A DNA stretch of 64,000 bases from Enterobacter vonholyi (lineage in GTDB: Bacteria; Pseudomonadota; Gammaproteobacteria; Enterobacterales; Enterobacteriaceae), in contig NZ_VTUC01000002.1 in the NCBI RefSeq assembly GCF_008364555.1, positions 248,001-312,000 of the forward strand. Reading direction: 5' to 3'. Each line of letters opens with the position of its first letter. Position 1 is the first letter of the stretch. The notes beneath the pieces are model-generated. The model was not told where the DNA came from, searched no databases, and saw only the letters and a program-made list of their open reading frames with translations. Of this stretch, positions 6,410 through 41,732 are shown piece after piece. A program made the translations under genes and the position numbers.

Positions 6410-8050
6410 ATGGAAAATAAGAGTGGAGAGGCGAAAGTGCAGAAGGTCAAAAACTGGTCACCGGTGTGGATTTTTCCCATCGTGACCGCGCTGATCGGTG
6501 CATGGATCCTGTTTTATCATTACAGCCATCAGGGACCGGAAGTCACGCTGATAACCACCAATGCCGAGGGGATTGAGGGCGGTAAAACGACCATCAAAAG
6601 CCGTAGCGTGGATGTGGGCGTGGTCGAAAGCGCAACCCTGACCGACGATTTAACCCATGTGGAGATTAAGGCGCGCCTTAATGCCGGCATGGAGAAACTG
6701 CTGCACGGCGATTCCGTTTTCTGGGTCGTTAAACCGCAGGTGGGGCGTGAAGGGATCAGCGGCTTAGGAACGCTGCTTTCGGGCGCCTACATAGAGCTGC
6801 AGCCCGGCGCTAAGGGTAACCAGCCTGCCAAATACCAGCTTCTGGATTCACCGCCGCTTGCGCCGCCTGATGCCAAGGGCATCCGCGTGATCCTCGACAG
6901 CAAAAAAGCAGGTCAGCTCACGGCGGGCGACCCGGTACTGTTTCGCGGCTACCGCGTCGGGTCGGTTGAGAAAAGCACGTTCGATCCGCAGAAACGCGCA
7001 ATTAGCTATCAGCTCTTCATCAATGCGCCAAACGATCGTCTGGTCACCAGCAACGTCCGTTTCTGGAAAGACAGCGGGATCGCGGTGGATCTGACCTCGG
7101 CAGGCATGCGCGTTGAAATGGGTTCGCTGACCACGCTGTTTGGCGGCGGCGTGAGTTTTGACGTGCCGGAAGGCCTGGATTTGGGGCAGCCGGTCGCAGA
7201 GAACACCGCTTTCCGTCTCTTTGACGACCAAAAAAGCATTCAGGATGCGCTCTATACCGATCACGTTGACTTCCTGATGTTCTTCAAAGACTCCGTTCGC
7301 GGCCTGCAGCCGGGGGCGCCCGTTGAGTTCCGCGGCATTCGTCTCGGTACGGTTGGACAAGTGCCGTTCTTCGTCCCGGGCCTTCAGCAGGTGCTGGATG
7401 ATGATTACCGTATTCCGGTGCTGATCCGCATTGAACCAGAGCGTCTGCTTAACCAGATTGGTGAAAATCAGGATATCGCTACCCATATCACCCAACTGAT
7501 GGAACGCGGTCTACGCGGGTCGCTGAAAACCGGCAACCTGGTAACCGGCGCGCTGTATGTGGATATGGACTTCTACCCGAAAGCACCGCCGATTACCGGT
7601 ATCCGTGAATTCGGCGGCTACAAGATCATCCCAACGGTGAGCAGCGGTCTGGCGCAGATCCAGCAGCGTCTGATGGAGACGCTGGATAAGATCAACAATC
7701 TGCCACTGAATCCGATGATTGAAGCGGCGACAAACTCGCTGAGCGAAAGCCAGGCAACGATGCGCCGTCTGCAAACCACGCTGGATAACATCAACAAGAT
7801 CACGGCGAGCCAGAGCATGCAGCAGCTGCCGCAGGACATGCAGAAAACGCTGCGTGAGCTGAACCGCAGTATGCAGGGCTTCCAGCCGGGCTCTGCGGCC
7901 TATAACAAGATGGTGGCAGATATGCAGCGTCTTGATCAGGTCCTGCGTGAACTGCAGCCGGTGCTGAAAACGCTCAACGAGAAGAGCAATGCGCTGGTGT
8001 TCGAAGCAAAAGATAAAAAGGATCCTGAGCCGAAGAGGGCAAAAGAATGA
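6410..8050 (+). CDS. pqiB: PqiB, MCE-domain envelope-spanning protein
   Basis: Membrane-anchored MCE protein of 546 residues. A single transmembrane helix (about residues 18-38, reading WSPVWIFPIVTALIGAWILF) is followed by three MCE domains and a long alpha-helical C-terminal region rich in LxxLQ-type heptads, which in E. coli PqiB builds a hollow needle bridging the periplasm to PqiC. The ATG at 6410 is chosen because it gives the E. coli length and start. GTG 6374 and ATG 6392 upstream are in frame but overlap pqiA. The stop overlaps the pqiC start by 4 bases. Confidence 0.96.
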   Translation: MENKSGEAKVQKVKNWSPVWIFPIVTALIGAWILFYHYSHQGPEVTLITTNAEGIEGGKTTIKSRSVDVGVVESATLTDDLTHVEIKARLNAGMEKLLHGDSVFWVVKPQVGREGISGLGTLLSGAYIELQPGAKGNQPAKYQLLDSPPLAPPDAKGIRVILDSKKAGQLTAGDPVLFRGYRVGSVEKSTFDPQKRAISYQLFINAPNDRLVTSNVRFWKDSGIAVDLTSAGMRVEMGSLTTLFGGGVSFDVPEGLDLGQPVAENTAFRLFDDQKSIQDALYTDHVDFLMFFKDSVRGLQPGAPVEFRGIRLGTVGQVPFFVPGLQQVLDDDYRIPVLIRIEPERLLNQIGENQDIATHITQLMERGLRGSLKTGNLVTGALYVDMDFYPKAPPITGIREFGGYKIIPTVSSGLAQIQQRLMETLDKINNLPLNPMIEAATNSLSESQATMRRLQTTLDNINKITASQSMQQLPQDMQKTLRELNRSMQGFQPGSAAYNKMVADMQRLDQVLRELQPVLKTLNEKSNALVFEAKDKKDPEPKRAKE

Positions 8051-8613
8051 AAAAATGGCTATTGATGGTTGGCGCTCTGCTGTTAACGGCGTGCAGTTCA
8101 GGGGGCGATAATAAAAGTTATTATCAGCTGCCTGTGGCAACCCACAGCGGTGGGCAAAGCACGGCGAGTCAGGGAAACCGCCAGCTGTGGGTTGAGCAGG
8201 TCGCCGTGCCGGATTATCTGGCAGGGAACGGCGTGGTCTATCAGACCAGCGACGTTAAATACGTGATTGCGACCAACAACCTGTGGGCCAGCCCGCTGGA
8301 TCAGCAGCTGCGCAACACGCTGGTGGCTAACCTGGGCAGCCAGCTTCCGGGCTGGGTAGTCGCGTCGCAGCCGCTGGGTAACGATCAGGATACGCTGAAC
8401 GTCACCGTAACGGGCTTCCACGGCCGCTATGACGGTGCGGTGGTGATCAGCGGGGAGTGGTTGCTGAACCATCAGGGGCAGCTGATTAAGCGTCCTTTCC
8501 ATCTGGAGCTGAAGCAGCAGAAGGATGGCTATGACGAAATGGTGAAAGTCCTGGCTCAGGGTTGGGCGCAGGAGTCGGCCAGTATCGCGAGGGAGATTTC
8601 CCGGCTGCCATAA
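8047..8613 (+). CDS. pqiC: PqiC outer-membrane lipoprotein
   Basis: Lipoprotein of 188 residues (formerly YmbA). The signal peptide MKKWLLMVGALLLTACSS has a lipobox LTAC, so the mature protein is lipidated on Cys16. Residue +2 is Ser, which favours sorting to the outer membrane. In E. coli PqiC caps the PqiB needle there. The start codon overlaps the pqiB stop as ATGA, indicating translational coupling. A rho-independent terminator follows directly. Confidence 0.95.
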   Translation: MKKWLLMVGALLLTACSSGGDNKSYYQLPVATHSGGQSTASQGNRQLWVEQVAVPDYLAGNGVVYQTSDVKYVIATNNLWASPLDQQLRNTLVANLGSQLPGWVVASQPLGNDQDTLNVTVTGFHGRYDGAVVISGEWLLNHQGQLIKRPFHLELKQQKDGYDEMVKVLAQGWAQESASIAREISRLP

Positions 8614-8629
8614 GTAAAATTCATCATTA

Positions 8630-8668
8630 AAAACCGCAGTTGGCCTGTCGCTGATTGCGGTTTTTTTT
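8630..8668 (+). terminator. Rho-independent terminator of pqiABC
   Basis: Stem AACCGCA / TGCGGTT with a loop of about 15 bases, followed by eight T residues, starting 17 bases after the pqiC stop. Confidence 0.85.
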
Positions 8669-8868
8669 CGTTTTCAACTCAGGTTGTTACTTGTGCCACG
8701 TCACAATTTTTGTACAAATGAACTTCCATGTAGCTCACAAATATGACACCCGTATGAATTTTGAACATTGACGATGCGACTAATTCGGGGTATTCGTTAT
8801 CTGTGCCTGTGCAGATAGCGCAGACACTGTTTTCTTTCCACCAGACAAAAGAATGAGGGAAACGAGGC

Positions 8869-9036
8869 ATGAAGAGACAGAAACGAGATCGCCTGGAACG
8901 GGCTCATCAACGTGGTTATCAGGCCGGCATCGCTGGACGTTCTAAAGAAATGTGTCCTTATCAGACGATAAATCAAAGGTCACAATGGCTTGGAGGCTGG
9001 CGAGAAGCCATCGGCGACAGGGCACTCATAGCCTGA
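8869..9036 (+). CDS. rmf: Ribosome modulation factor RMF
   Basis: Small basic protein of 55 residues that dimerises 70S ribosomes into inactive 100S particles in stationary phase. It begins MKRQKRDRLERAHQRGYQAG and is nearly identical to E. coli RMF up to residue 48. The last residues (GDRALIA) diverge mildly. An AACGAGG ribosome-binding site stands just upstream of the ATG at 8869. The 200 bases between the pqiC terminator and this gene hold no ORF and presumably carry its ppGpp-responsive promoter. Its position before convergent fabA is as in E. coli. Confidence 0.97.
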   Translation: MKRQKRDRLERAHQRGYQAGIAGRSKEMCPYQTINQRSQWLGGWREAIGDRALIA

Positions 9037-9047
9037 TAACGTCTCTT

Positions 9048-9080
9048 TCAAAAAAGAAACCTCCGCATTGCGGAGGTTTC
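9048..9080 (-). terminator. fabA (and possibly bidirectional rmf) terminator
   Basis: Perfect 11-bp stem GAAACCTCCGC / GCGGAGGTTTC (9056-9066 and 9070-9080) with a 3-base loop. Read on the minus strand it is followed by a T-rich run, so it terminates fabA. It lies 20 bases after the convergent rmf stop. Confidence 0.85.
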
Positions 9081-9106
9081 GCCTTTCCGGGGTTCGAAAA
9101 GCACGA

Positions 9107-9625
9107 TCAGAACGCAGAAGTGTCCTGGAACAGGCCAACCTTCAGGTCGCTTGCGCTATAGATCAGACGACCGTCGACCAGTACTTCACCATCTGCCAGG
9201 CCCATAATCAGGCGGCGGTTTACGATGCGCTTGAAGTGAATACGATAGGTCACTTTCTTCGCTGTAGGCAGAACCTGTCCAGTGAATTTCACTTCGCCCA
9301 CGCCCAGTGCGCGGCCTTTACCTTCGCCACCCAGCCAGCCCAGATAGAAGCCAACCAGCTGCCACATGGCATCCAGGCCCAAACAGCCAGGCATTACCGG
9401 ATCGCCAATAAAGTGGCAACCGAAGAACCACAGGTCCGGGTTGATATCGAGTTCTGCTTCTACGTAACCCTTATCGAAGTTGCCGCCGGTTTCGGTCATT
9501 TTCACGACACGGTCCATCATCAGCATGTTCGGGGCCGGCAACTGTGGGCCTTTTGCGCCAAACAGTTCGCCGCGACCAGAGGCAAGAAGATCTTCTTTTG
9601 TATAGGATTCGCGTTTATCTACCAT
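9107..9625 (-). CDS. fabA: 3-hydroxydecanoyl-ACP dehydratase/isomerase FabA
   Basis: Bifunctional hot-dog-fold enzyme of type II fatty acid synthesis. It dehydrates 3-hydroxydecanoyl-ACP and isomerises trans-2 to cis-3 decenoyl-ACP, the branch point to unsaturated fatty acids. At 172 residues it has the E. coli length. The catalytic His71 lies in [14 protein letters not shown] and Asp85 in CLGLDAMW (70 and 84 without Met). Its upstream region carries FabR- and FadR-type operators (separate entries), so it is probably repressed by FabR and activated by FadR. lonH ends just upstream on the same strand. Confidence 0.97.
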
Positions 9626-35487: not shown

Positions 35488-35575
35488 GGAAGTGTGGCCG
35501 AGCGGTTGAAGGCACCGGTCTTGAAAACCGGCGACCCGAAAGGGTTCCAGAGTTCGAATCTCTGCGCTTCCGCCA
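35488..35575 (+). tRNA. serT: tRNA-Ser (anticodon UGA), copy 1
   Basis: Complete class II tRNA of 88 bases including encoded CCA. The anticodon loop CTTGAAA gives anticodon TGA. It has a long variable arm, TTCGAATC in the T loop, and acceptor stem GGAAGTG / CGCTTCC with one T-G wobble. It lies downstream of yccA, as serT does in E. coli. A terminator follows. Confidence 0.97.
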
Positions 35576-35581
35576 GATATA

Positions 35582-35614
35582 AACCCCAGGTTACTCGTGA
35601 ACCTGGGGTTTTTG
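35582..35614 (+). terminator. Terminator of tRNA-Ser copy 1
   Basis: Stem AACCCCAGGTT / AACCTGGGGTT with a 7-base loop, then a T-rich stretch. Confidence 0.88.
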
Positions 35615-35865
35615 TTTTGGATTGACCGATCCGCCTCACACTTTCAAGACCCCGTTATTTCCCCGCAAAAATCAGGCGCTATTATTCACCCCGTAAATAC
35701 CTTTTCATCTCTCATCGAGGCTTTGATGCTGGAGAATGTTTTCATCAGATAATCAGTTTCCCGACCTTTTCAGGACGGACTGGTTATCGCTGCGCTTAAA
35801 CCTTACGCACGCACCTGCGGGTGTGGGCTCGTTTTTACGCATGATGATTACACAGGTTTTCCAGT

Positions 35866-36123
35866 ATGAATTTATCCCGTCAGGAACAACGTACCTTACA
35901 CGTTCTCGCCAAAGGTGGGCATATTGTGCACGTCCGCGACAGTTCCGGCCGCGTTACGTCCGTAGAGTGCTATACCCGTGAAGGGCTGATACTGAGCGAC
36001 TGCACGCTCAGCGTCTTCAAAAAACTCCGCACCAAAAAGCTAATCCGCTCCGTGAACGGGCAGCCGTACCGGATCAACACCACCGGGCTGAACAACGTTC
36101 GCGCCCAGCTGGATAATCGCTAA
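35866..36123 (+). CDS. yjhX: YjhX/TopAI-family protein (orphan toxin-like)
   Basis: Protein of 85 residues closely matching E. coli YjhX ([40 protein letters not shown]). E. coli YjhX was reported as TopAI, an inhibitor of topoisomerase I whose toxicity is relieved by the YjhQ acetyltransferase. No YjhQ-like gene is adjacent here. The 250 bases upstream, after the tRNA terminator, contain no convincing gene. The ribosome-binding site is weak (TTTTCCAGT). Confidence 0.87.
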
Positions 36124-36186
36124 GCGGAATAGACAACGCCACCCTCGGGTGGCGTTCATGCATTAAACTGAATATTGTGGCGGAAT

Positions 36187-36219
36187 GTAGGCCGGGTAAG
36201 CGCAGCGCCACCCGGCAAG
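36187..36219. repeat. REP-type palindromic element
   Basis: GCCGGGT...ACCCGGC arms (36191-36216) around AAGCGCAGCGCC, the same family as the elements at 19685 and 51450. It lies between the convergent yjhX and hydrolase genes. Confidence 0.85.
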
Positions 36220-36229
36220 AAACGCAGCG

Positions 36230-37066
36230 TTATGAGCGAATGAAAGCCAGAATGTCCGCGTTGATAGTATCCGCATGGGTGGTATGCATCCCGTGCGGGA
36301 ACCCCGGATAAATTTTCAGCACGCTGTTCGCCAGCAGCTTGTCCTGCAGCAGGGCGGCATTCTTATACGGCACGACCTGATCGTCGTCGCCCTGCATCAC
36401 CAGAACGGGAACCGTGATGGTTTTTAAATCTTCCGTCTGATCGGTTTCAGAAAACGCCTTAATCCCCTCATAGTGGGCCTTGGCGCTGCCGATCATGCCC
36501 TGACGCCACCAGTTCTGAATCGTACCCTGTGAAATCTCGGCTCCCTCACGGTTAAAACCATAGAAAGGACCGCTGGCGACGTCGAGATAAAACTGGGCGC
36601 GGTTAGCCGCCAGCGCTTTGCGGAAGCCATCGAAAACCTCGATCGGCGTTCCGCCGGGGTTAGTCTCCGTTTTGACCATGAGAGGCGGAACAGAGCTGAC
36701 GAGCACCGCTTTGGCAACGCGCCCCTGCGGTTGGCCGTACCGGGCAACATAGCGGGCGACCTGGCCGCCGCCGGTGGAGTGACCGACGTGCACGGCATTA
36801 CGCAGATCCAGGCTTTCAACCACGGCTGACGCATCGGCCGCATAATGATCCATATCGTGCCCTTCACTCACCTGGTCCGAACGCCCGTGACCGCGGCGAT
36901 CGATAGCGATAACGCGATAGCCTTCAGCAAGGAAGAAGAGCATCTGGTTATCCCAGTCATCGGCACTCAACGGCCAACCGTGGTGGAAGACAATGGGCTG
37001 GGCCTCTTTGGGGCCCCAGTCTTTGTAGTAAATGTTGACGCCGTCTTTCGTGGTTACGAATGCCAT
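36230..37066 (-). CDS. Alpha/beta hydrolase (non-haem chloroperoxidase-like)
   Basis: Cytoplasmic alpha/beta-fold hydrolase of 278 residues. The nucleophile elbow GHSTGGG lies near residue 95, the acid is Asp in [11 protein letters not shown], and the His is in [11 protein letters not shown]. An oxyanion [12 protein letters not shown] is near residue 28. The overall sequence fits the esterase/cofactor-free haloperoxidase group. The substrate is unknown. No link to the neighbouring dlt genes is evident. It sits between a REP element and a 190-base non-coding stretch in which I see no gene. Confidence 0.88.
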
Positions 37067-37257
37067 ACTGCAGACTCCTCTGTTAAAGGCAAAACGATCG
37101 CAACCCGAGCGGAGAGCGAATCATTAATGCCTTAATTAAGTTGGCTTTTTTCTGTTTCCCGTACCGACAGTACCCCTAAAGTGTAGGTGAAATAGTAAAA
37201 GCAGTGGGTTTCATTCCTGTGAAAGGCAGCGTTTTGCTTTCAGGCGGGAGGGGGAAC

Positions 37258-37291
37258 GAAAAAAGGCTCTGGGGAGATCCTCCAGAGCCTT
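37258..37291 (-). terminator. Terminator of the dlt operon
   Basis: On the minus strand a hairpin GGCTCTGG / CCAGAGCC is followed by TTTTTT, about 30 bases after the dltC stop. Confidence 0.87.
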
Positions 37292-37317
37292 CAGGGCAGG
37301 ATTAACTGCAGGGGCGT

Positions 37318-37536
37318 TTAGCGGTTTTCTTCAATATAGCGGGCCAGGTCAGCCGGGGTTTTCAGCACCGTCGCTACGTCAGTTGGCGGGATCATACAGC
37401 CGTAAACGTCCTGCACTTCCAGCACCATATCGACCGCCAGGATGGAGTCGAGAATGTCGGATTCAATCAGTTCATCGTGAAAGCCCACCTTACGGGATAA
37501 CACTTTTTCGAACAGGGCGAGAATTTCTTGTTCCAT
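37318..37536 (-). CDS. dltC: DltC-like acyl carrier protein
   Basis: Acidic carrier protein of 72 residues. Ser in ESDILDSILAVDMV is the phosphopantetheine attachment site. It should receive the activated acyl or aminoacyl group from the DltA-like ligase and present it to the MBOAT DltB. ATG 37536 is preferred for its AGGA ribosome-binding site at good spacing. ATG 37554 overlaps the dltA stop (TAATG) and is an alternative. Last gene of dltDXBAC, followed by a terminator. The dlt symbols denote family membership; the cargo is not proven to be D-alanine. Confidence 0.85.
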   Translation of the reverse strand: MEQEILALFEKVLSRKVGFHDELIESDILDSILAVDMVLEVQDVYGCMIPPTDVATVLKTPADLARYIEENR

Positions 37537-37553
37537 AATTTTTCCTGGAGTCA

Positions 37554-38987
37554 TTAATTTGTGCGGGCGTAAGCGTCCAGCAGCTTGCGGTCAATTTTGC
37601 CGTTGGGATTCAGCGGCAAAGCGTCTTTTACGATAATTTGTGAAGGCACCATATAGTGCGGAACCACCTTAGACAGCGACGTTTTGATGGTATCCGGCGC
37701 CATATCGGTCACGCAGAACGCGGCAATGCGCAGCACGCTGCCGCAGGATTTCATCAGCGGCAGAACCACCGCTTCGTTGATGCCGGACATGGCCAGCAGG
37801 CGGTTTTCAATCTCGTTAATTTCAATACGGTAGCCATTCAGTTTGACCTGGCTATCGTTGCGGCCCTGGCAGTAGATAAGTCCCGCTTCATAGCCCAGAT
37901 CGCCGGTCCGGTAGCCGCGAAATGCTTCATTTTCCCGACGGAGTAATTTTTCTGCGTTCTCCTGCGGTAGGCCCAGGTAGCCGCGCATGACGTTTTTACC
38001 CCAGATAATCAGCTCGCCTTCAGCGGAAATTTCCATTCTGCTCTCTGGCATCATGACCCCCACCGGCAGCACGGCGCTGTCGCTGTTCAGGATCTCATCC
38101 GTGATTTCAACCACGGTGGTCGCGATGGTCGCTTCCGTTGGACCATAGGAGTTAATGATTTTTGCCTGCGGGAAGCGGCGGCGAAGCTGTTTAACCAGCG
38201 CTTTATTCAACACTTCACCAATGAAGATAAAGACGTTGAGTTCAGGTAAATACTCGCTGTTAAACTGCGGGGAAAGCAGCTGCTGGTAAGCAAAAGAGGG
38301 GGTGGAAATCCAGGCGGAGACGGCATTGCTTTTCAGTCGTTCCAGCCAGTTCTCTTTTTGAATGTCTTCTTTGGCGTTCAGCACGATGTGTCCACCCATC
38401 GCCAGATTCGCCAGCAAAGGGATCAGGGAGAGGTCAAAACTGAACACCGCGTGGTTCATCAGCACTGGTTTTTCCGGCAGCGAAAAGTCCTGGCTGACCC
38501 ATTTCATGAAGTGCCATACGCTTTCACGTCCAATCTGCACCCCTTTAGGCTTGCCGGTGCTGCCTGAGGTAAACATGATATAGGCCAAATCCTGCTCCTC
38601 CAGCACCTTGCCCGGTTCACCGGTGGCGATAAACTGCCGGGTCGCGACGTCGTAATAGTAAGGGGCGCTGGCCAGATGGCAGATCTCCCGCAGGCGCTCC
38701 TGCGGGTAAATGCAGTCCACCGGAATGTACGGAATGTTGTGCAGCAGGCAGCTATAAATCGCCACGGCGAACTCGGCCTGCTGGTGTCCGTACAAGACGA
38801 CCGGCGTACCGGCAACAGGCTGGCAACGCTCATAGCGCTGCGCCCAGTCCGTCACGGCCGCGGAAAGCTGCAGCCAGCTTAAGGCTTCGTCGCTGCCGCT
38901 GATGGCCAGCTGCTGCGGGGAGGCGGGATCGCATAATGCCGCACGCAAGAAATCGTGCATTTCCTGAAGATCGGAGTGATTTTTCAT
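37554..38987 (-). CDS. dltA: DltA-like adenylating ligase
   Basis: Adenylation-domain enzyme of 477 residues. Motifs are A3 YIMFTSGSTGKPKGV near residue 130, A5 NSYGPTEATIA near 290, A7 YRTGDLG near 375, A8 NGYRIEINEIE near 400, and A10 LPLNPNGKIDRK at the C-terminus. It activates an amino or other carboxylic acid with ATP and loads it on the adjacent carrier protein. Size and partners fit DltA (D-alanine), but AlmE-like enzymes use glycine, so specificity is open. The start overlaps dltB by 4 bases. Confidence 0.88.
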   Translation of the reverse strand: MKNHSDLQEMHDFLRAALCDPASPQQLAISGSDEALSWLQLSAAVTDWAQRYERCQPVAGTPVVLYGHQQAEFAVAIYSCLLHNIPYIPVDCIYPQERLREICHLASAPYYYDVATRQFIATGEPGKVLEEQDLAYIMFTSGSTGKPKGVQIGRESVWHFMKWVSQDFSLPEKPVLMNHAVFSFDLSLIPLLANLAMGGHIVLNAKEDIQKENWLERLKSNAVSAWISTPSFAYQQLLSPQFNSEYLPELNVFIFIGEVLNKALVKQLRRRFPQAKIINSYGPTEATIATTVVEITDEILNSDSAVLPVGVMMPESRMEISAEGELIIWGKNVMRGYLGLPQENAEKLLRRENEAFRGYRTGDLGYEAGLIYCQGRNDSQVKLNGYRIEINEIENRLLAMSGINEAVVLPLMKSCGSVLRIAAFCVTDMAPDTIKTSLSKVVPHYMVPSQIIVKDALPLNPNGKIDRKLLDAYARTN

Positions 38988-40105
38988 AGAGGTGACATTC
39001 CACTAAAGATGTAAAGGGAGCCCGCGGCGCTTCCCAGCGTCAGAATGCGTCCCAAAAATGCAACGGCCGGATACTGCAAGCCCCGGTGCAATGCCGGGCT
39101 GCGTTTGGCTAACCACAGCAGCATGTTATGAGTGACGGAAATCGCGCCAAACAGCGCGCCGCTGATGACGTAATGGCGTTCCAGGCCATTCCATGCCCCC
39201 ATGCAGAACAGGGTGCAAAAAATACCGATATTTTGCGCCAGCGTTTTGTTCTGACGGAAAAAGTTGAACTTCATCAGGTTCATATAAACGGGCATAAAGA
39301 CCACATCGCGCAGCCATTCAGACAGGCTGATGTGGAAGCGGCGCCAGAAATCCTGCGGGTTCTTTGCCAGAAGCGGCATATTGAAGTTTGCCGGAATGTT
39401 GAGTCCAAACAGGCGGCCTGCGCCGATGGCCATATTGCTGTAGCCCGCAAAATCAAAGTACAGATAGGCGCTATAGGCAATCGACATCACCACGCCCACG
39501 GTCAGCGTAAACGGCTTATGGCTCCAGGGCTGCACGACAAGTGAGTCAACCAGCATCGCAAACAGGAACTTCTGGATAATGCCGGTAATGATTTGCTCCA
39601 GCGCCACTAAAAACTGTTCGCGAGTAAGGGCAAAGACGGGCTTGCTGACGTCGCTCATCCATGTCCGCCAGCGGTACATTGGGCCCGCCAGAATAATAAA
39701 GGGCATAAACAGATAGCAGAAATAGTGCAGGAAATTCTGCCCTTCTTTTTTACTGCGATAGAGCAGCACGTCCACCGCGCGGAACGTCATAAAAGAGAGG
39801 CCGATCATGCCGAGATGGTGATTAACGTGCAGTTTCACCAAAAATAAAGGAAGCAGCGTTAACACAATCGCCTGCCAGGTTTTTAACCATCCTTTTTCTT
39901 TTAACGCGGCGACAAGGTAAAAACTAAAAAAAACGACCGCGGGAACACGGTAATCACCCTGAAAAATATAGCCCCAGCCTAATGCGGCCAGGACGGATAA
40001 GGCCGATAAATAAGTCAGGCGATGGCGTAATACGCGATTGACCAGCGCAAACGCCAGCGCGGATGAAAACAAATAAACAAAAAACATTCCTGAGCTATAC
40101 ATCAT
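38984..40105 (-). CDS. dltB: DltB-like MBOAT acyltransferase
   Basis: Polytopic inner-membrane protein of 373 residues with about ten hydrophobic segments, of the membrane-bound O-acyltransferase family. Hallmarks are WRRFHISLSEWLRDVVFMP and the catalytic His in WNGLERHYVISGA. In the Dlt pathway DltB takes the acyl group from the DltC thioester and moves it to the C-terminal Tyr of DltX on the outer face. It starts at ATG 40105 (an ATG follows in frame), 6 bases after the dltX stop. Confidence 0.9.
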   Translation of the reverse strand: MMYSSGMFFVYLFSSALAFALVNRVLRHRLTYLSALSVLAALGWGYIFQGDYRVPAVVFFSFYLVAALKEKGWLKTWQAIVLTLLPLFLVKLHVNHHLGMIGLSFMTFRAVDVLLYRSKKEGQNFLHYFCYLFMPFIILAGPMYRWRTWMSDVSKPVFALTREQFLVALEQIITGIIQKFLFAMLVDSLVVQPWSHKPFTLTVGVVMSIAYSAYLYFDFAGYSNMAIGAGRLFGLNIPANFNMPLLAKNPQDFWRRFHISLSEWLRDVVFMPVYMNLMKFNFFRQNKTLAQNIGIFCTLFCMGAWNGLERHYVISGALFGAISVTHNMLLWLAKRSPALHRGLQYPAVAFLGRILTLGSAAGSLYIFSGMSPL

Positions 40106-40111
40106 TCGGCC

Positions 40112-40234
40112 TCAGAATTTTTGATATTCAAAATGCAGCTGCATACTCATGCTGTCATCGACAGAGGTCCACGCGACGACGGTAATCGCCAGCAGGAGAT
40201 AAAGGAAAAAAAGACGGATCGCAATTTTCATCAT
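40112..40234 (-). CDS. dltX: DltX-like transmembrane microprotein with acyl-shuttle C-terminus
   Basis: Small ORF of 40 codons. One hydrophobic helix (about residues 7-22, RLFFLYLLLAITVVAW) follows a basic N-terminus, and the chain ends in HFEYQKF. The last six residues FEYQKF fit the FxYxxF-type C-terminal hexapeptide of Gram-positive DltX, whose Tyr carries the acyl group from DltB to DltD. The topology puts that tail in the periplasm. The start ATG at 40234 overlaps the dltD stop (ATGATGA), and dltB begins 6 bases after the stop, so it is translationally placed inside the operon. It is too short for standard ORF cut-offs. Confidence 0.82.
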   Translation of the reverse strand: MMKIAIRLFFLYLLLAITVVAWTSVDDSMSMQLHFEYQKF

Positions 40235-41388
40235 TTAAAACTCTGTGCAATAAAGCGAATCATAGGAACCCAGGCCAGTTCGGAAGGGTGCAAACGATCC
40301 CAGTTCCAGCCATTCTGATAAGGCATGGCGTACATATCTAAATAGGGGATCTGGTTCTTTTCCAGAATGGTTTTAATTTGCTTATCAACCGGGCGGAAGG
40401 TATCGGTGTTGTAAAGCGCCCAGGGGTTAACCGGGTCGACGATAGCAATCACCTGCACGTGATGTTCTTTCAGCAGCTGGACGGTTTTACTGAAAGCGGC
40501 GATTTGCGCAGGCACGACCGGCGTGTCGTCCCACTGTTGCCGCGTACCGTCCTCTTCGTAAATCGTTTTGTCCATCCACAGGGTGGCCGCGCTCTGCTGG
40601 CGTTTTTTATTTAACTCGCGGGCATTCGCCAGCTCTTTATCCCAGTCAGGGATAATGTGGGTGGCTGGCTGCGGCGGCCAGGTCTGAACCGTCTGGGGCC
40701 TAATGTTGAGCAGCGACAGCCAGTCGTTTTTTATCATGGTACAGACGTTCGCAAACTGGAAGCTCAGCTCGTCCCAGATCAGATCGGGATGCCAGCCAAA
40801 GACGCGCATTTGGCCAAAGGTTAAATGGCTTATTTCTTTACTATCAATATGCTTTAAATAATTAACCAGCAGCGGGCGCGCCTGCGGATCCTTCACCAGT
40901 GGATTAAAAATAGAGCCGGGGAAATTATCGGCATAAATAGCCGGTGGCAGCCCTTTTGAGTAAAAGCTGTCAGGCGCCAGCAGCAAAACAACTTTACTGT
41001 TTGCGTTAAGGCTATTTTTAAAGCGTGAGAATAGTAAAAATTGCGTTTCATCATCGACAAACGCATCGCCATACGCCACGACGGGTTTGTGTAATTGCTT
41101 ATTAAAGTAATTATATACAGCGTAATGTTCATCTTCTGAGGTGGCAACCTCAGACGCGCCAATGAAGAAAATAGCATTCCCTTCTAAGGCATGAGAAATA
41201 GTGGCAATTTTTTCCGCCTGTTCTTTAGGCGTACCCGCCATTGATTTAATCAGCGGCTGGAAAGTGAGCGGTGGATCGAAACTCGTCACCAGCGGGTGAA
41301 CACAGAGAAACAAAATGGCCAGCGTCGCCATCAGGAAATGTAAGCAAAGCGAATTTTTGATTTTCATCATCAACCAGTAACACTGCAT
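40231..41388 (-). CDS. dltD: DltD-like SGNH-type acyl transferase
   Basis: Protein of up to 385 residues with one N-terminal membrane anchor (about residues 12-36) and a periplasmic domain. The nucleophile Ser is in FFIGASEVA and the Asp/His pair in WDRLHPSELAW, the SGNH triad arrangement of DltD. It should move the acyl group from DltX to the final envelope acceptor, which in a Gram-negative cannot be lipoteichoic acid. First gene of the operon. The start is uncertain: ATG 41388 is the longest, and ATG 41370/41367 shorten it by six or seven residues; none has a strong ribosome-binding site. Confidence 0.85.
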   Translation of the reverse strand: MQCYWLMMKIKNSLCLHFLMATLAILFLCVHPLVTSFDPPLTFQPLIKSMAGTPKEQAEKIATISHALEGNAIFFIGASEVATSEDEHYAVYNYFNKQLHKPVVAYGDAFVDDETQFLLFSRFKNSLNANSKVVLLLAPDSFYSKGLPPAIYADNFPGSIFNPLVKDPQARPLLVNYLKHIDSKEISHLTFGQMRVFGWHPDLIWDELSFQFANVCTMIKNDWLSLLNIRPQTVQTWPPQPATHIIPDWDKELANARELNKKRQQSAATLWMDKTIYEEDGTRQQWDDTPVVPAQIAAFSKTVQLLKEHHVQVIAIVDPVNPWALYNTDTFRPVDKQIKTILEKNQIPYLDMYAMPYQNGWNWDRLHPSELAWVPMIRFIAQSFK

Positions 41389-41423
41389 GGCAGTAATTTC
41401 TAAATCTGTGGCTACTCAGATTT

Positions 41424-41440
41424 ATAACAATTACACAACA
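41424..41440 (-). promoter_or_regulatory. Possible PhoP-box-like direct repeat upstream of dltD
   Basis: On the minus strand TGTTGT and TGTTAT start 11 bases apart, the spacing of PhoP boxes (consensus TGTTTA-N5-TGTTTA), 36 bases upstream of the dltD frame. Each half matches at only 4 of 6 positions, so this is weak. The rest of 41441-41603 is AT-rich with no gene seen. Confidence 0.25.
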
Positions 41441-41603
41441 AATGACCGTTTATTTTTGTGGCATTCTATACCAGAGAGTTTTAAAACGATGAGTGTTGCT
41501 ATGTTACGGTATGTACAAGGTCGCGGAGAGTGATGTGAAGTCAGCGTTTGGGTGACTTTTTGCGCAGTCAAACGCCTGTGGGGAAAAATAGAAAAATTCC
41601 TGC

Positions 41604-41632
41604 TTTACAAGGCGCTAATAGATGTTTATAGT
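41604..41632 (+). promoter_or_regulatory. Sigma-70 promoter of the second tRNA-Ser gene
   Basis: TTTACA and TATAGT with 17 bases between, then a GCGCC discriminator, as before copy 1. Confidence 0.8.
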
Positions 41633-41644
41633 GCGCCTCACTTT

Positions 41645-41732
41645 GGAAGCGTGGCCGAGCGGTTGAAGGCACCGGTCTTGAAAACCGGCGACCCGAAAGG
41701 GTTCTAGAGTTCGAATCTCTACGCTTCCGCCA
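41645..41732 (+). tRNA. tRNA-Ser (anticodon UGA), copy 2
   Basis: Complete 88-base tRNA with encoded CCA and anticodon TGA. It differs from copy 1 at three bases. Acceptor position 6 is C instead of T, turning a T-G wobble into C-G. Two T-arm changes (C to T and G to A) form a compensatory pair. It has its own promoter and terminator. The GC-rich hpx cluster begins just behind it. Confidence 0.97.

What the first reader, a model, noticed from the sequence alone, without database searches (positions are those of the whole stretch)
37318..41388. Complete five-gene dlt-type envelope acylation operon in an enterobacterium
Seen: adjacent, overlapping genes for an SGNH transferase (DltD-like), a microprotein, an MBOAT (DltB-like), an adenylating ligase (DltA-like) and a carrier protein (DltC-like) on one strand with one terminator. 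Known: in Firmicutes this set D-alanylates teichoic acids, and Bordetella carries a dlt-like dra locus. Inference: since enterobacteria have no teichoic acid, the final acceptor must be another envelope polymer (LPS, O-antigen, capsule or a periplasmic glucan), which could affect charge and resistance to cationic peptides.
Basis: partly seen in the sequence, partly recalled or inferred. Interest (0 to 1): 0.85.

Follow-up and report, generated by a model that had tools for sequence, protein, structure and literature searches.

The report
Enterobacterial dlt operon, catalytic histidine missing
This is a complete, selected and mobile five-gene pathway that probably attaches an amino acid to the outer surface of gut and plant bacteria and helps them resist cationic peptides, and its membrane enzyme lacks the one histidine thought to be universal in its family.

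Summary
Confirmed: window 37318-41388 (minus strand) holds dltD-dltX-dltB-dltA-dltC, closed by a strong terminator. The 'microprotein' is a DltX: one hydrophobic helix ending in the FXYXXF acyl-shuttle hexapeptide (FEYQ[K/Q]F in 89 of 89 loci). The kind is known: it is the dlt operon of Dickeya and Pectobacterium. Published dltB knock-out primers fit a Dickeya orthologue, and that mutant was polymyxin-sensitive (acceptor unknown). New here: (1) DltB of this clade carries Asn at the 'invariant' catalytic MBOAT His (S. thermophilus His336) in 59 of 59 distinct proteins, against His in 43 of 43 other aligned MBOATs. The second active-site His is kept, two neighbours changed (W288F, Y345S), the Asn codon alternates AAC/AAT, and dltB is under strong purifying selection: a rearranged active site, not decay. 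(2) DltA has Ile at the Cys that favours D-alanine (59 of 59), so cargo may be D-Ala or Gly. (3) In Enterobacter the operon is optional cargo between two tRNA-Ser genes (14 of 15 carriers; 15 of 60 genomes); a Phytobacter-like copy is on three plasmids. Best reading: aminoacyl-ester transfer to an envelope glycan, probably LPS, by an MBOAT using a swapped His/Asn dyad. Chemistry and acceptor are inferred.

The parts
40231..41388 (-). dltD: membrane-anchored SGNH acyltransferase (likely start about 41370/41367)
   Evidence: Pfam DltD 1.2e-21; Ser79, Asp364, His367 in 53 of 53 distinct homologues; one N-terminal hydrophobic stretch
40112..40234 (-). dltX: 40-aa acyl-shuttle microprotein ending in FEYQKF
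   Evidence: FEYQ[K/Q]F at the C-terminus in 89 of 89 loci with a dltX hit; hydrophobic stretch; two Firmicutes DltX end in FIYNEF; no match over a cut-off in Pfam, none in NCBIfam or PDB
38984..40105 (-). dltB: MBOAT with Asn306 in place of the invariant catalytic His; His258 kept
   Evidence: alignment to 6BUG/8JEM; Asn in 59/59, His in 43/43 others; neighbours F257, S315
37554..38987 (-). dltA: amino-acid adenylating ligase with Ile256 at the Cys269 position
   Evidence: best PDB hits are DltA 3FCC/3DHV/3E7W; Asp185 and Lys464 kept, Ile256 in 59/59 against Cys in 4/4 Firmicutes
37318..37554 (-). dltC: carrier protein (likely start about 37536, 72 aa)
   Evidence: PP-binding 5.9e-09; LDSI serine in the homologues listed; the NCBIfam DltC model scores it no better than an acyl carrier model (23 and 22.9 bits)
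37256..37292 (-). intrinsic terminator after dltC
41389..41530 (-). upstream region with a TGTT direct repeat 11 bp apart (TTTGTTGTGTAATTGTTAT), ArcA- or PhoP-box-like (recalled consensus); function untested
   Evidence: no site reached 10 of 12 to the PhoP consensus in the window
35488..35575 (+). tRNA-Ser(tga), one border of the cassette
41645..41732 (+). tRNA-Ser(tga), other border; 94.7% identical over 113 bp to the first

Best explanation
A five-gene aminoacyl-ester pathway. DltA adenylates a small alpha-amino acid (D-Ala or Gly) and loads it on DltC. DltB moves it through the membrane to the Tyr of DltX's C-terminal hexapeptide, DltX hands it to the Ser of periplasmic DltD, and DltD esterifies an envelope glycan, most likely LPS, lowering negative charge. 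DltB does this with a swapped dyad: His258 is the catalytic base and Asn306 (where every other MBOAT examined here has His) the polar partner, the mirror of the Asn/His arrangement in ACAT1, DGAT1 and PORCN. Shown here: gene set, motifs, conservation, selection. Shown by others in Dickeya: dltB matters for surviving polymyxin. Inferred: cargo, acceptor, the direction of the dyad, and DltD's role.
For: Motifs: DltX hexapeptide 89/89 loci; DltD Ser-Asp-His 53/53; DltA Asp185 and Lys464 59/59. Dyad: His258 in 59/59 and in 43/43 others; position 306 Asn 59/59 against His 43/43. A pattern survey of 63 loci, which include the loci of most of those 43, found the site in 61: 70 His and 1 Asn, the one being the window's own DltB (L185). 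Hand count along the 6BUG alignment agrees with PMC11035591 for W285, W288, H289, W335, H336 and Y345. Selection: codon 306 AAC 49, AAT 41 in the 90 operon-bearing loci; dltB dS 0.20-1.14 against dN 0.012-0.101 in 8 hand-picked pairs. Function: Dickeya dltB mutant 99% mortality in polymyxin, 'unknown substrate'; its primers hit Dickeya oryzae L064 at 7510 and 9184, bracketing dltB. Shuttle mechanism: PMC12148441.
Against: The same literature calls the MBOAT His universal and required, so loss of activity is the default expectation, and MBOAT-like proteins without it that are thought inactive exist (HHATL; recalled). A dltD mutant of Dickeya was as resistant as wild type (Pandin 2016, as cited in PMC5541007; the paper itself is not held), which does not fit a strictly linear DltB-DltX-DltD pathway for peptide resistance. 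In the aphid test the dltB mutant was not slower to kill. No acceptor gene is linked: 20 flanking genes of 10 loci, 16 with a Pfam hit, share no family. The AlphaFold model of DltB was too poor to place the residues (pLDDT 48.5). DltC is not clearly a DltC by HMM. The 43 comparison MBOATs are 5 from Firmicutes and 38 from Pseudomonadota only.
Confidence: 0.55

Rival explanations
1. DltB has lost acyltransferase chemistry and only forms the conduit or scaffold: the thioester of DltC reaches DltX or another acceptor without MBOAT catalysis, or DltB's role in polymyxin survival is indirect.
For: Loss of the residue that papers call universal and required; aromatic neighbours W288 and Y345 also changed; dltD dispensable for polymyxin survival in Dickeya.
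Against: dltB is strongly conserved (dN/dS 0.06-0.10), the rest of the active site (His258, W254, W305, Y222, D218) is invariant in 59 of 59, and DltX keeps its Tyr hexapeptide in 89/89 loci, which is hard to explain without acyl transfer.
Confidence: 0.2
2. Canonical D-alanylation: cargo is D-Ala exactly as in Firmicutes, and DltB's Asn simply replaces His without a swapped dyad.
For: DltA is nearest to DltA in PDB and NCBIfam; Asp, Leu and Lys of the pocket kept. Ile at the Cys269 place would be expected to clash with L-Ala at least as much, so D-Ala stays possible (inference from PMC4176424, passages).
Against: Cys to Ile and Met to Ile in the pocket in 59/59; Asn cannot act as a general base.
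Confidence: 0.2
3. DltA and DltC serve a secondary-metabolite pathway unrelated to the envelope.
For: DltA is an NRPS-type adenylation domain.
Against: With dltX and dltB in 89 of 90 loci and split only by a record start in the other; no biosynthetic gene recurs beside it in 10 loci; the Dickeya dltB phenotype is polymyxin survival.
Confidence: 0.02
4. The Asn is an alignment or assembly artefact, or the operon is a decaying pseudogene.
For: A few copies do decay: stops in dltB of Enterobacter sp. EA-1 (L037/L076) and short frames in L068, L075, L077 and L007/L135.
Against: Asn codon in all 90 operon-bearing loci, in an MGAWNG context aligned without gaps to MGFWHG; strong purifying selection in the 8 pairs.
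Confidence: 0.01

Closest known systems
dlt operon of Dickeya dadantii and Pectobacterium (PMC3544676, abstract and passages; Pandin 2016, not held)
   Same: Same five genes in the same order in Pectobacterium L046-L049, L051-L053, L062, L065, L071, L077 and Dickeya L064, L070; DltB 80-85% identical; Asn306 there too; published dltB primers fit L064 (both) and L070 (the one tried).
   Different: Different chromosomal place; in Enterobacter it sits between two tRNA-Ser genes. The His/Asn exchange is not mentioned in the passages I read.
Firmicutes dltXABCD (D-alanylation of teichoic acids)
   Same: Same five functions incl. DltX hexapeptide; DltA 31-38% identical to four Firmicutes DltA.
   Different: Gene order; no teichoic acid; DltB His336 to Asn, W288 to Phe, Y345 to Ser; DltA Cys269 to Ile; the four enzymes below NCBIfam equivalog cut-offs. 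DltB is about as far from Firmicutes DltB as from AlgI-type MBOATs.
PatA/PatB, AlgI/AlgJ and other MBOAT-SGNH pairs
   Same: MBOAT plus SGNH, acyl-Tyr hexapeptide (PMC12148441, abstract and passages).
   Different: They carry the hexapeptide on the MBOAT itself and use an acyl-CoA donor; here a separate DltX and a carrier protein are used, and the MBOAT His is missing.
Vibrio cholerae AlmEFG (glycinylation of lipid A; recalled, not compared)
   Same: Ligase plus carrier that aminoacylate the Gram-negative surface and give polymyxin resistance (recalled).
   Different: AlmG is not an MBOAT-SGNH pair (recalled).

Membership tests
dlt operon (teichoic acid D-alanylation type) | five genes dltX, A, B, C, D together | tested here: met
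   window, and 83 of 90 operon-bearing loci; 5 of the other 7 are cut by the locus end, 1 by a record start, 1 (L068) lacks a dltC hit
dlt operon (teichoic acid D-alanylation type) | DltX C-terminal FXYXXF | tested here: met
   89/89
dlt operon (teichoic acid D-alanylation type) | NCBIfam equivalog or subfamily cut-offs for DltA, DltB, DltC, DltD | tested here: not met
   380/476, 194/375, 23/68, 44/150 bits
dlt operon (teichoic acid D-alanylation type) | DltA Cys269 favouring D-alanine | tested here: not met
   Ile in 59/59
dlt operon (teichoic acid D-alanylation type) | D-Ala ester on teichoic acid | not testable with these tools
   no teichoic acid in enterobacteria (established knowledge); chemistry needed
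MBOAT (PF03062) | family HMM above gathering score | tested here: met
   41.4 against 27 bits
MBOAT (PF03062) | invariant catalytic His (His336 of S. thermophilus DltB) | tested here: not met
   Asn in 59/59; His in 43/43 others
MBOAT (PF03062) | second active-site residue (His289) | tested here: met
   His258 in 59/59
SGNH acyltransferase DltD | Ser and Asp-x-x-His catalytic residues | tested here: met
   53/53
Dickeya/Pectobacterium dltDXBAC | orthology and gene order | tested here: met

The most novel reading that the evidence does not exclude
A whole clade of MBOAT acyltransferases that works without the family's 'universal' histidine, by handing the base role to the other active-site histidine, in a Gram-negative pathway that puts an amino acid other than (or besides) D-alanine, such as glycine, on LPS.
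Probability: 0.3. Interest if true: 0.8.

Novelty: new variant of a known kind. Interest (0 to 1): 0.62.

Why it matters
The MBOAT histidine is treated as a defining catalytic residue. A selected enzyme, genetically needed for polymyxin survival in Dickeya, that replaces it in every member examined gives a direct natural test of what the two active-site residues do. The operon also gives an entry to a long-open question: what is aminoacylated on the surface of enterobacteria that have dlt genes but no teichoic acid. Its presence as a removable cassette in Enterobacter and on plasmids could explain why related strains differ in surface charge.

Tried and rejected
AlphaFold of DltB from alignment A1 (9 rows) gave pLDDT 48.5 and was not used; no fold search was run. 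Tree of 55 MBOATs: the enterobacterial, Firmicutes and other groups are each one clade, but an unrooted three-clade tree cannot say which two are sisters, so I claim no origin. TIGR04091 over 150 genomes of the phylum: 0 of 150 over the cut-off, the window scoring 193.6 bits against 187.4 for the next MBOAT, so 'DltB' by HMM alone would be weak. One gene on either side of the operon in 10 loci away from the tRNA-Ser(tga) site: 16 of 20 had a Pfam hit, no family recurs, no acceptor gene. PhoP-box scan: no site at 10 of 12 or better in the window; two weak sites only in L072. DltB-like hits in phage records (45 records, none covering 80% of the query, all under 60% identity) were not followed. 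Secondary-metabolite reading set aside. Literature: the paper searches listed no paper whose title points to this operon in Enterobacter or to an Asn-bearing MBOAT; for most papers I saw only title and start of abstract, four lists were cut (10 of 12, 10 of 24, 10 of 13, 12 of 33 shown), and the library lacks most subscription papers. Reviews PMC8941995 and PMC11279074 (passages) treat dlt as Gram-positive only in what I saw. Bordetella dra and V. cholerae AlmE were not compared by sequence.

Rows dropped before counts: DltB frames under 330 aa (4 of 90 loci: L013, L037, L075, L076), DltA under 470 aa (5 of 90: L037, L068, L075, L076, L077), DltD under 370 aa (12 of 89; 7 of these, L003, L038, L041, L062, L129, L130, L141, came out as 1-5 aa, which I read as my start-finder running into a stop upstream of the real start rather than as broken genes). 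Many loci are one genome fetched by two tools, so distinct-sequence counts (59, 59, 53) are the fairer ones. The 8 dN/dS pairs were chosen by hand to span distance; dltD of L129 was not computed there. In the His survey 2 of 63 loci (L187, L195) did not show the pattern at all.
Full report
What is there. On the minus strand of the window five tightly packed genes run dltD (40231-41388), dltX (40112-40234), dltB (38984-40105), dltA (37554-38987), dltC (37318-37554). Pfam places four of them (DltD, MBOAT, AMP-binding, PP-binding). The 40-aa microprotein has no match over a cut-off in Pfam and none in NCBIfam or PDB, but it has one hydrophobic stretch and ends in FEYQKF. FXYXXF is the 'acyl shuttle' motif of DltX, whose Tyr carries the acyl group between DltB and DltD (PMC12148441, abstract and passages). 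Two annotated Firmicutes DltX proteins, read here, end in FIYNEF. FEYQ[K/Q]F is at the C-terminus in 89 of 89 loci with a dltX hit. A hairpin of -25.7 kcal/mol (z -4.87) ending in U6 closes the operon. Start codons of dltD and dltC are probably 18-21 bases inside the listed ORFs.

Where it occurs. A full-length DltB of at least 88% identity is in 15 of 60 genomes of the genus (own genome included; 3 further weak hits at 31-42% identity). In the family, 26 of 295 genomes and 12 of 154 genera have a match at 1e-40. In a sample of the order only 4 of 197, and of the phylum only 3 of 299, have a close copy; the other hits are MBOATs at 28-35% identity (order) or HMM matches (phylum), mostly in longer frames. 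The named-genome scan gave 40 loci, in Enterobacter, Lelliottia, Phytobacter, Kosakonia, Cedecea, Pluralibacter, Serratia, Pectobacterium, Dickeya and Symbiopectobacterium. Megablast found no match in the E. coli collection (5,426 genomes). Of 90 operon-bearing loci fetched, 83 show all five genes as D-X-B-A-C on one strand; of the rest five are cut by the locus end, L013 by a record start, and L068 has no dltC hit.

It is a mobile cassette. In the window the operon lies, with a hydrolase gene and a YjhX gene, between two tRNA-Ser(tga) genes 94.7% alike over 113 bp. Of 15 carriers in the genus sample, 14 (window, L128-L139 and G047 = L038) have it at this place; the fifteenth (G022) has it between two tRNA-Ser(gga) genes elsewhere, and its own tRNA-Ser(tga) pair is empty. 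Of 20 genomes without the operon, fetched out of 45, 5 have the two tRNA genes 121-133 bases apart, 2 carry the hydrolase only, 1 the hydrolase and YjhX, 8 other cargo, and 4 show one tRNA-Ser in the stretch. The other cargo includes FecCD-type transporters, a GH43 xylosidase-like protein, a mechanosensitive channel, BCCT and PQQ proteins (10 proteins of 5 loci scanned). In 10 loci at other places the operon sits among unrelated genes. Three plasmids (Klebsiella electrica, Enterobacter cloacae, K. pneumoniae) carry a copy 98.6-99.2% identical to the Phytobacter diazotrophicus chromosome over 2.3-4.7 kb (the shortest cut by a record start); the likeness ends about 0.1 kb after dltC, beside an IS1 gene, and 0.2-0.5 kb before dltD.

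It is functional. In 8 hand-picked pairs dltB has dS 0.20-1.14 against dN 0.012-0.101, and the other four genes also have dN far below dS. [quoted passage not shown] dltBAC was induced in aphids, though the dltB mutant was not significantly slower to kill them (PMC3544676, abstract and passages). The primers printed there match the Dickeya oryzae locus L064 at 7510 (1 mismatch) and 9184 (2 mismatches), 1.67 kb around dltB (8001-9119), agreeing with the stated 1.7 kb. So the gene tested is an orthologue. Against a simple linear pathway: a dltD mutant was as resistant as wild type (Pandin 2016 as cited in PMC5541007, passages).

The unexpected part: DltB. phmmer aligns the window's DltB with S. 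thermophilus DltB (6BUG, 8JEM) without gaps through MGAWNG/MGFWHG and RRFHISLS/NRWHMSLS. Counting along the chain by hand reproduces the published numbers W285, W288, H289, W335, H336 and Y345 (PMC11035591, passages). His336, called 'invariant' there and 'universally conserved' in PMC12148441, is Asn306 here. All 59 distinct enterobacterial proteins (86 loci) have Asn; all 43 other MBOATs aligned (5 Firmicutes DltB, 38 from Pseudomonadota) have His. A pattern survey of 63 loci, overlapping with these, found the site in 61: 70 His and one Asn, the window itself. His289 is kept (His258, 59 of 59). W288 is Phe in 59 of 59 (Trp in 43 of 43) and Y345 is Ser in 59 of 59 (aromatic in 43 of 43). Codon 306 is AAC in 49 and AAT in 41 of the 90 operon-bearing loci: the base drifts, the Asn stays. 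PMC11035591 lists Asn/His pairs for ACAT1, DGAT1 and PORCN with Asn first (at the tip of the horizontal helix in ACAT1 and DGAT1, the 289 place) and His on TMH7 (the 336 place); here the two are exchanged. I therefore propose that His258 is the base and Asn306 the partner. This step is inference.

DltA. The nearest solved structures are DltA (3FCC, 3DHV, 3E7W). The Asp that binds the amino group and the catalytic Lys are kept, so an alpha-amino acid is expected; but Cys269, which lies close to the alpha carbon and favours D over L (PMC4176424, PMC8972799, passages), is Ile256 in 59 of 59, against Cys in 4 of 4 Firmicutes DltA, and a Met of the methyl cavity is Ile. A larger residue there should still exclude L-Ala and fits D-Ala or Gly (inference).

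Family placement. By HMM the four enzymes fall below the NCBIfam Dlt cut-offs, and DltC scores the same with an acyl carrier model. DltB scores hardly better with the DltB model than the best AlgI-like MBOAT (193.6 against 187.4 bits). A tree of 55 MBOATs puts the enterobacterial DltB on a stem of 2.4 changes per site, as long as that of the Firmicutes. So it works like a dlt system and shares its five parts, but it is a deep, separate branch with defining features tested and not met (MBOAT His; DltA Cys; equivalog cut-offs).

Verdict. What deserves attention is the missing histidine in a selected enzyme, with the altered DltA pocket and the cassette mobility.

Noticed in passing
window 35488-41732; L108-L141: A tandem tRNA-Ser pair beside yccA is a cargo hotspot in Enterobacter: empty (121-133 bp), or filled with dlt, a hydrolase, YjhX, FecCD transporters, a GH43 protein, BCCT or PQQ genes; no integrase was looked for systematically.
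   Followed up: partly
L141 (G022:C1:1664000-1682000): The one off-site copy in the genus sample is also flanked by two tRNA-Ser genes, but of the gga kind.
   Followed up: no
L205 and L013 (NZ_CP063883.1): On K. pneumoniae plasmid pS90-2.2 the dlt copy lies near genes annotated pmrD, DedA family, undecaprenyl-diphosphatase, an ATP-grasp amidoligase and an MFS transporter, an envelope-related neighbourhood.
   Followed up: no
window 41389-41530 and upstream of dltD in L038-L077: TGTT-type direct repeats 11 bp apart recur upstream of dltD in several genera; they resemble ArcA or PhoP boxes (recalled consensus).
   Followed up: partly
L037/L076 (Enterobacter sp. EA-1), L068, L075, L077, L007/L135: Decaying or shortened copies: stops in dltB of EA-1, short frames in two Symbiopectobacterium loci, a short dltA frame in Pectobacterium sp. 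PL152, a 258-aa dltD frame in G039.
   Followed up: no
L072, L033-L036: A divergent branch (DltB 69-72%, DltD 42-54% identity) in some Enterobacteriaceae keeps Asn306 and FEYQQF.
   Followed up: no
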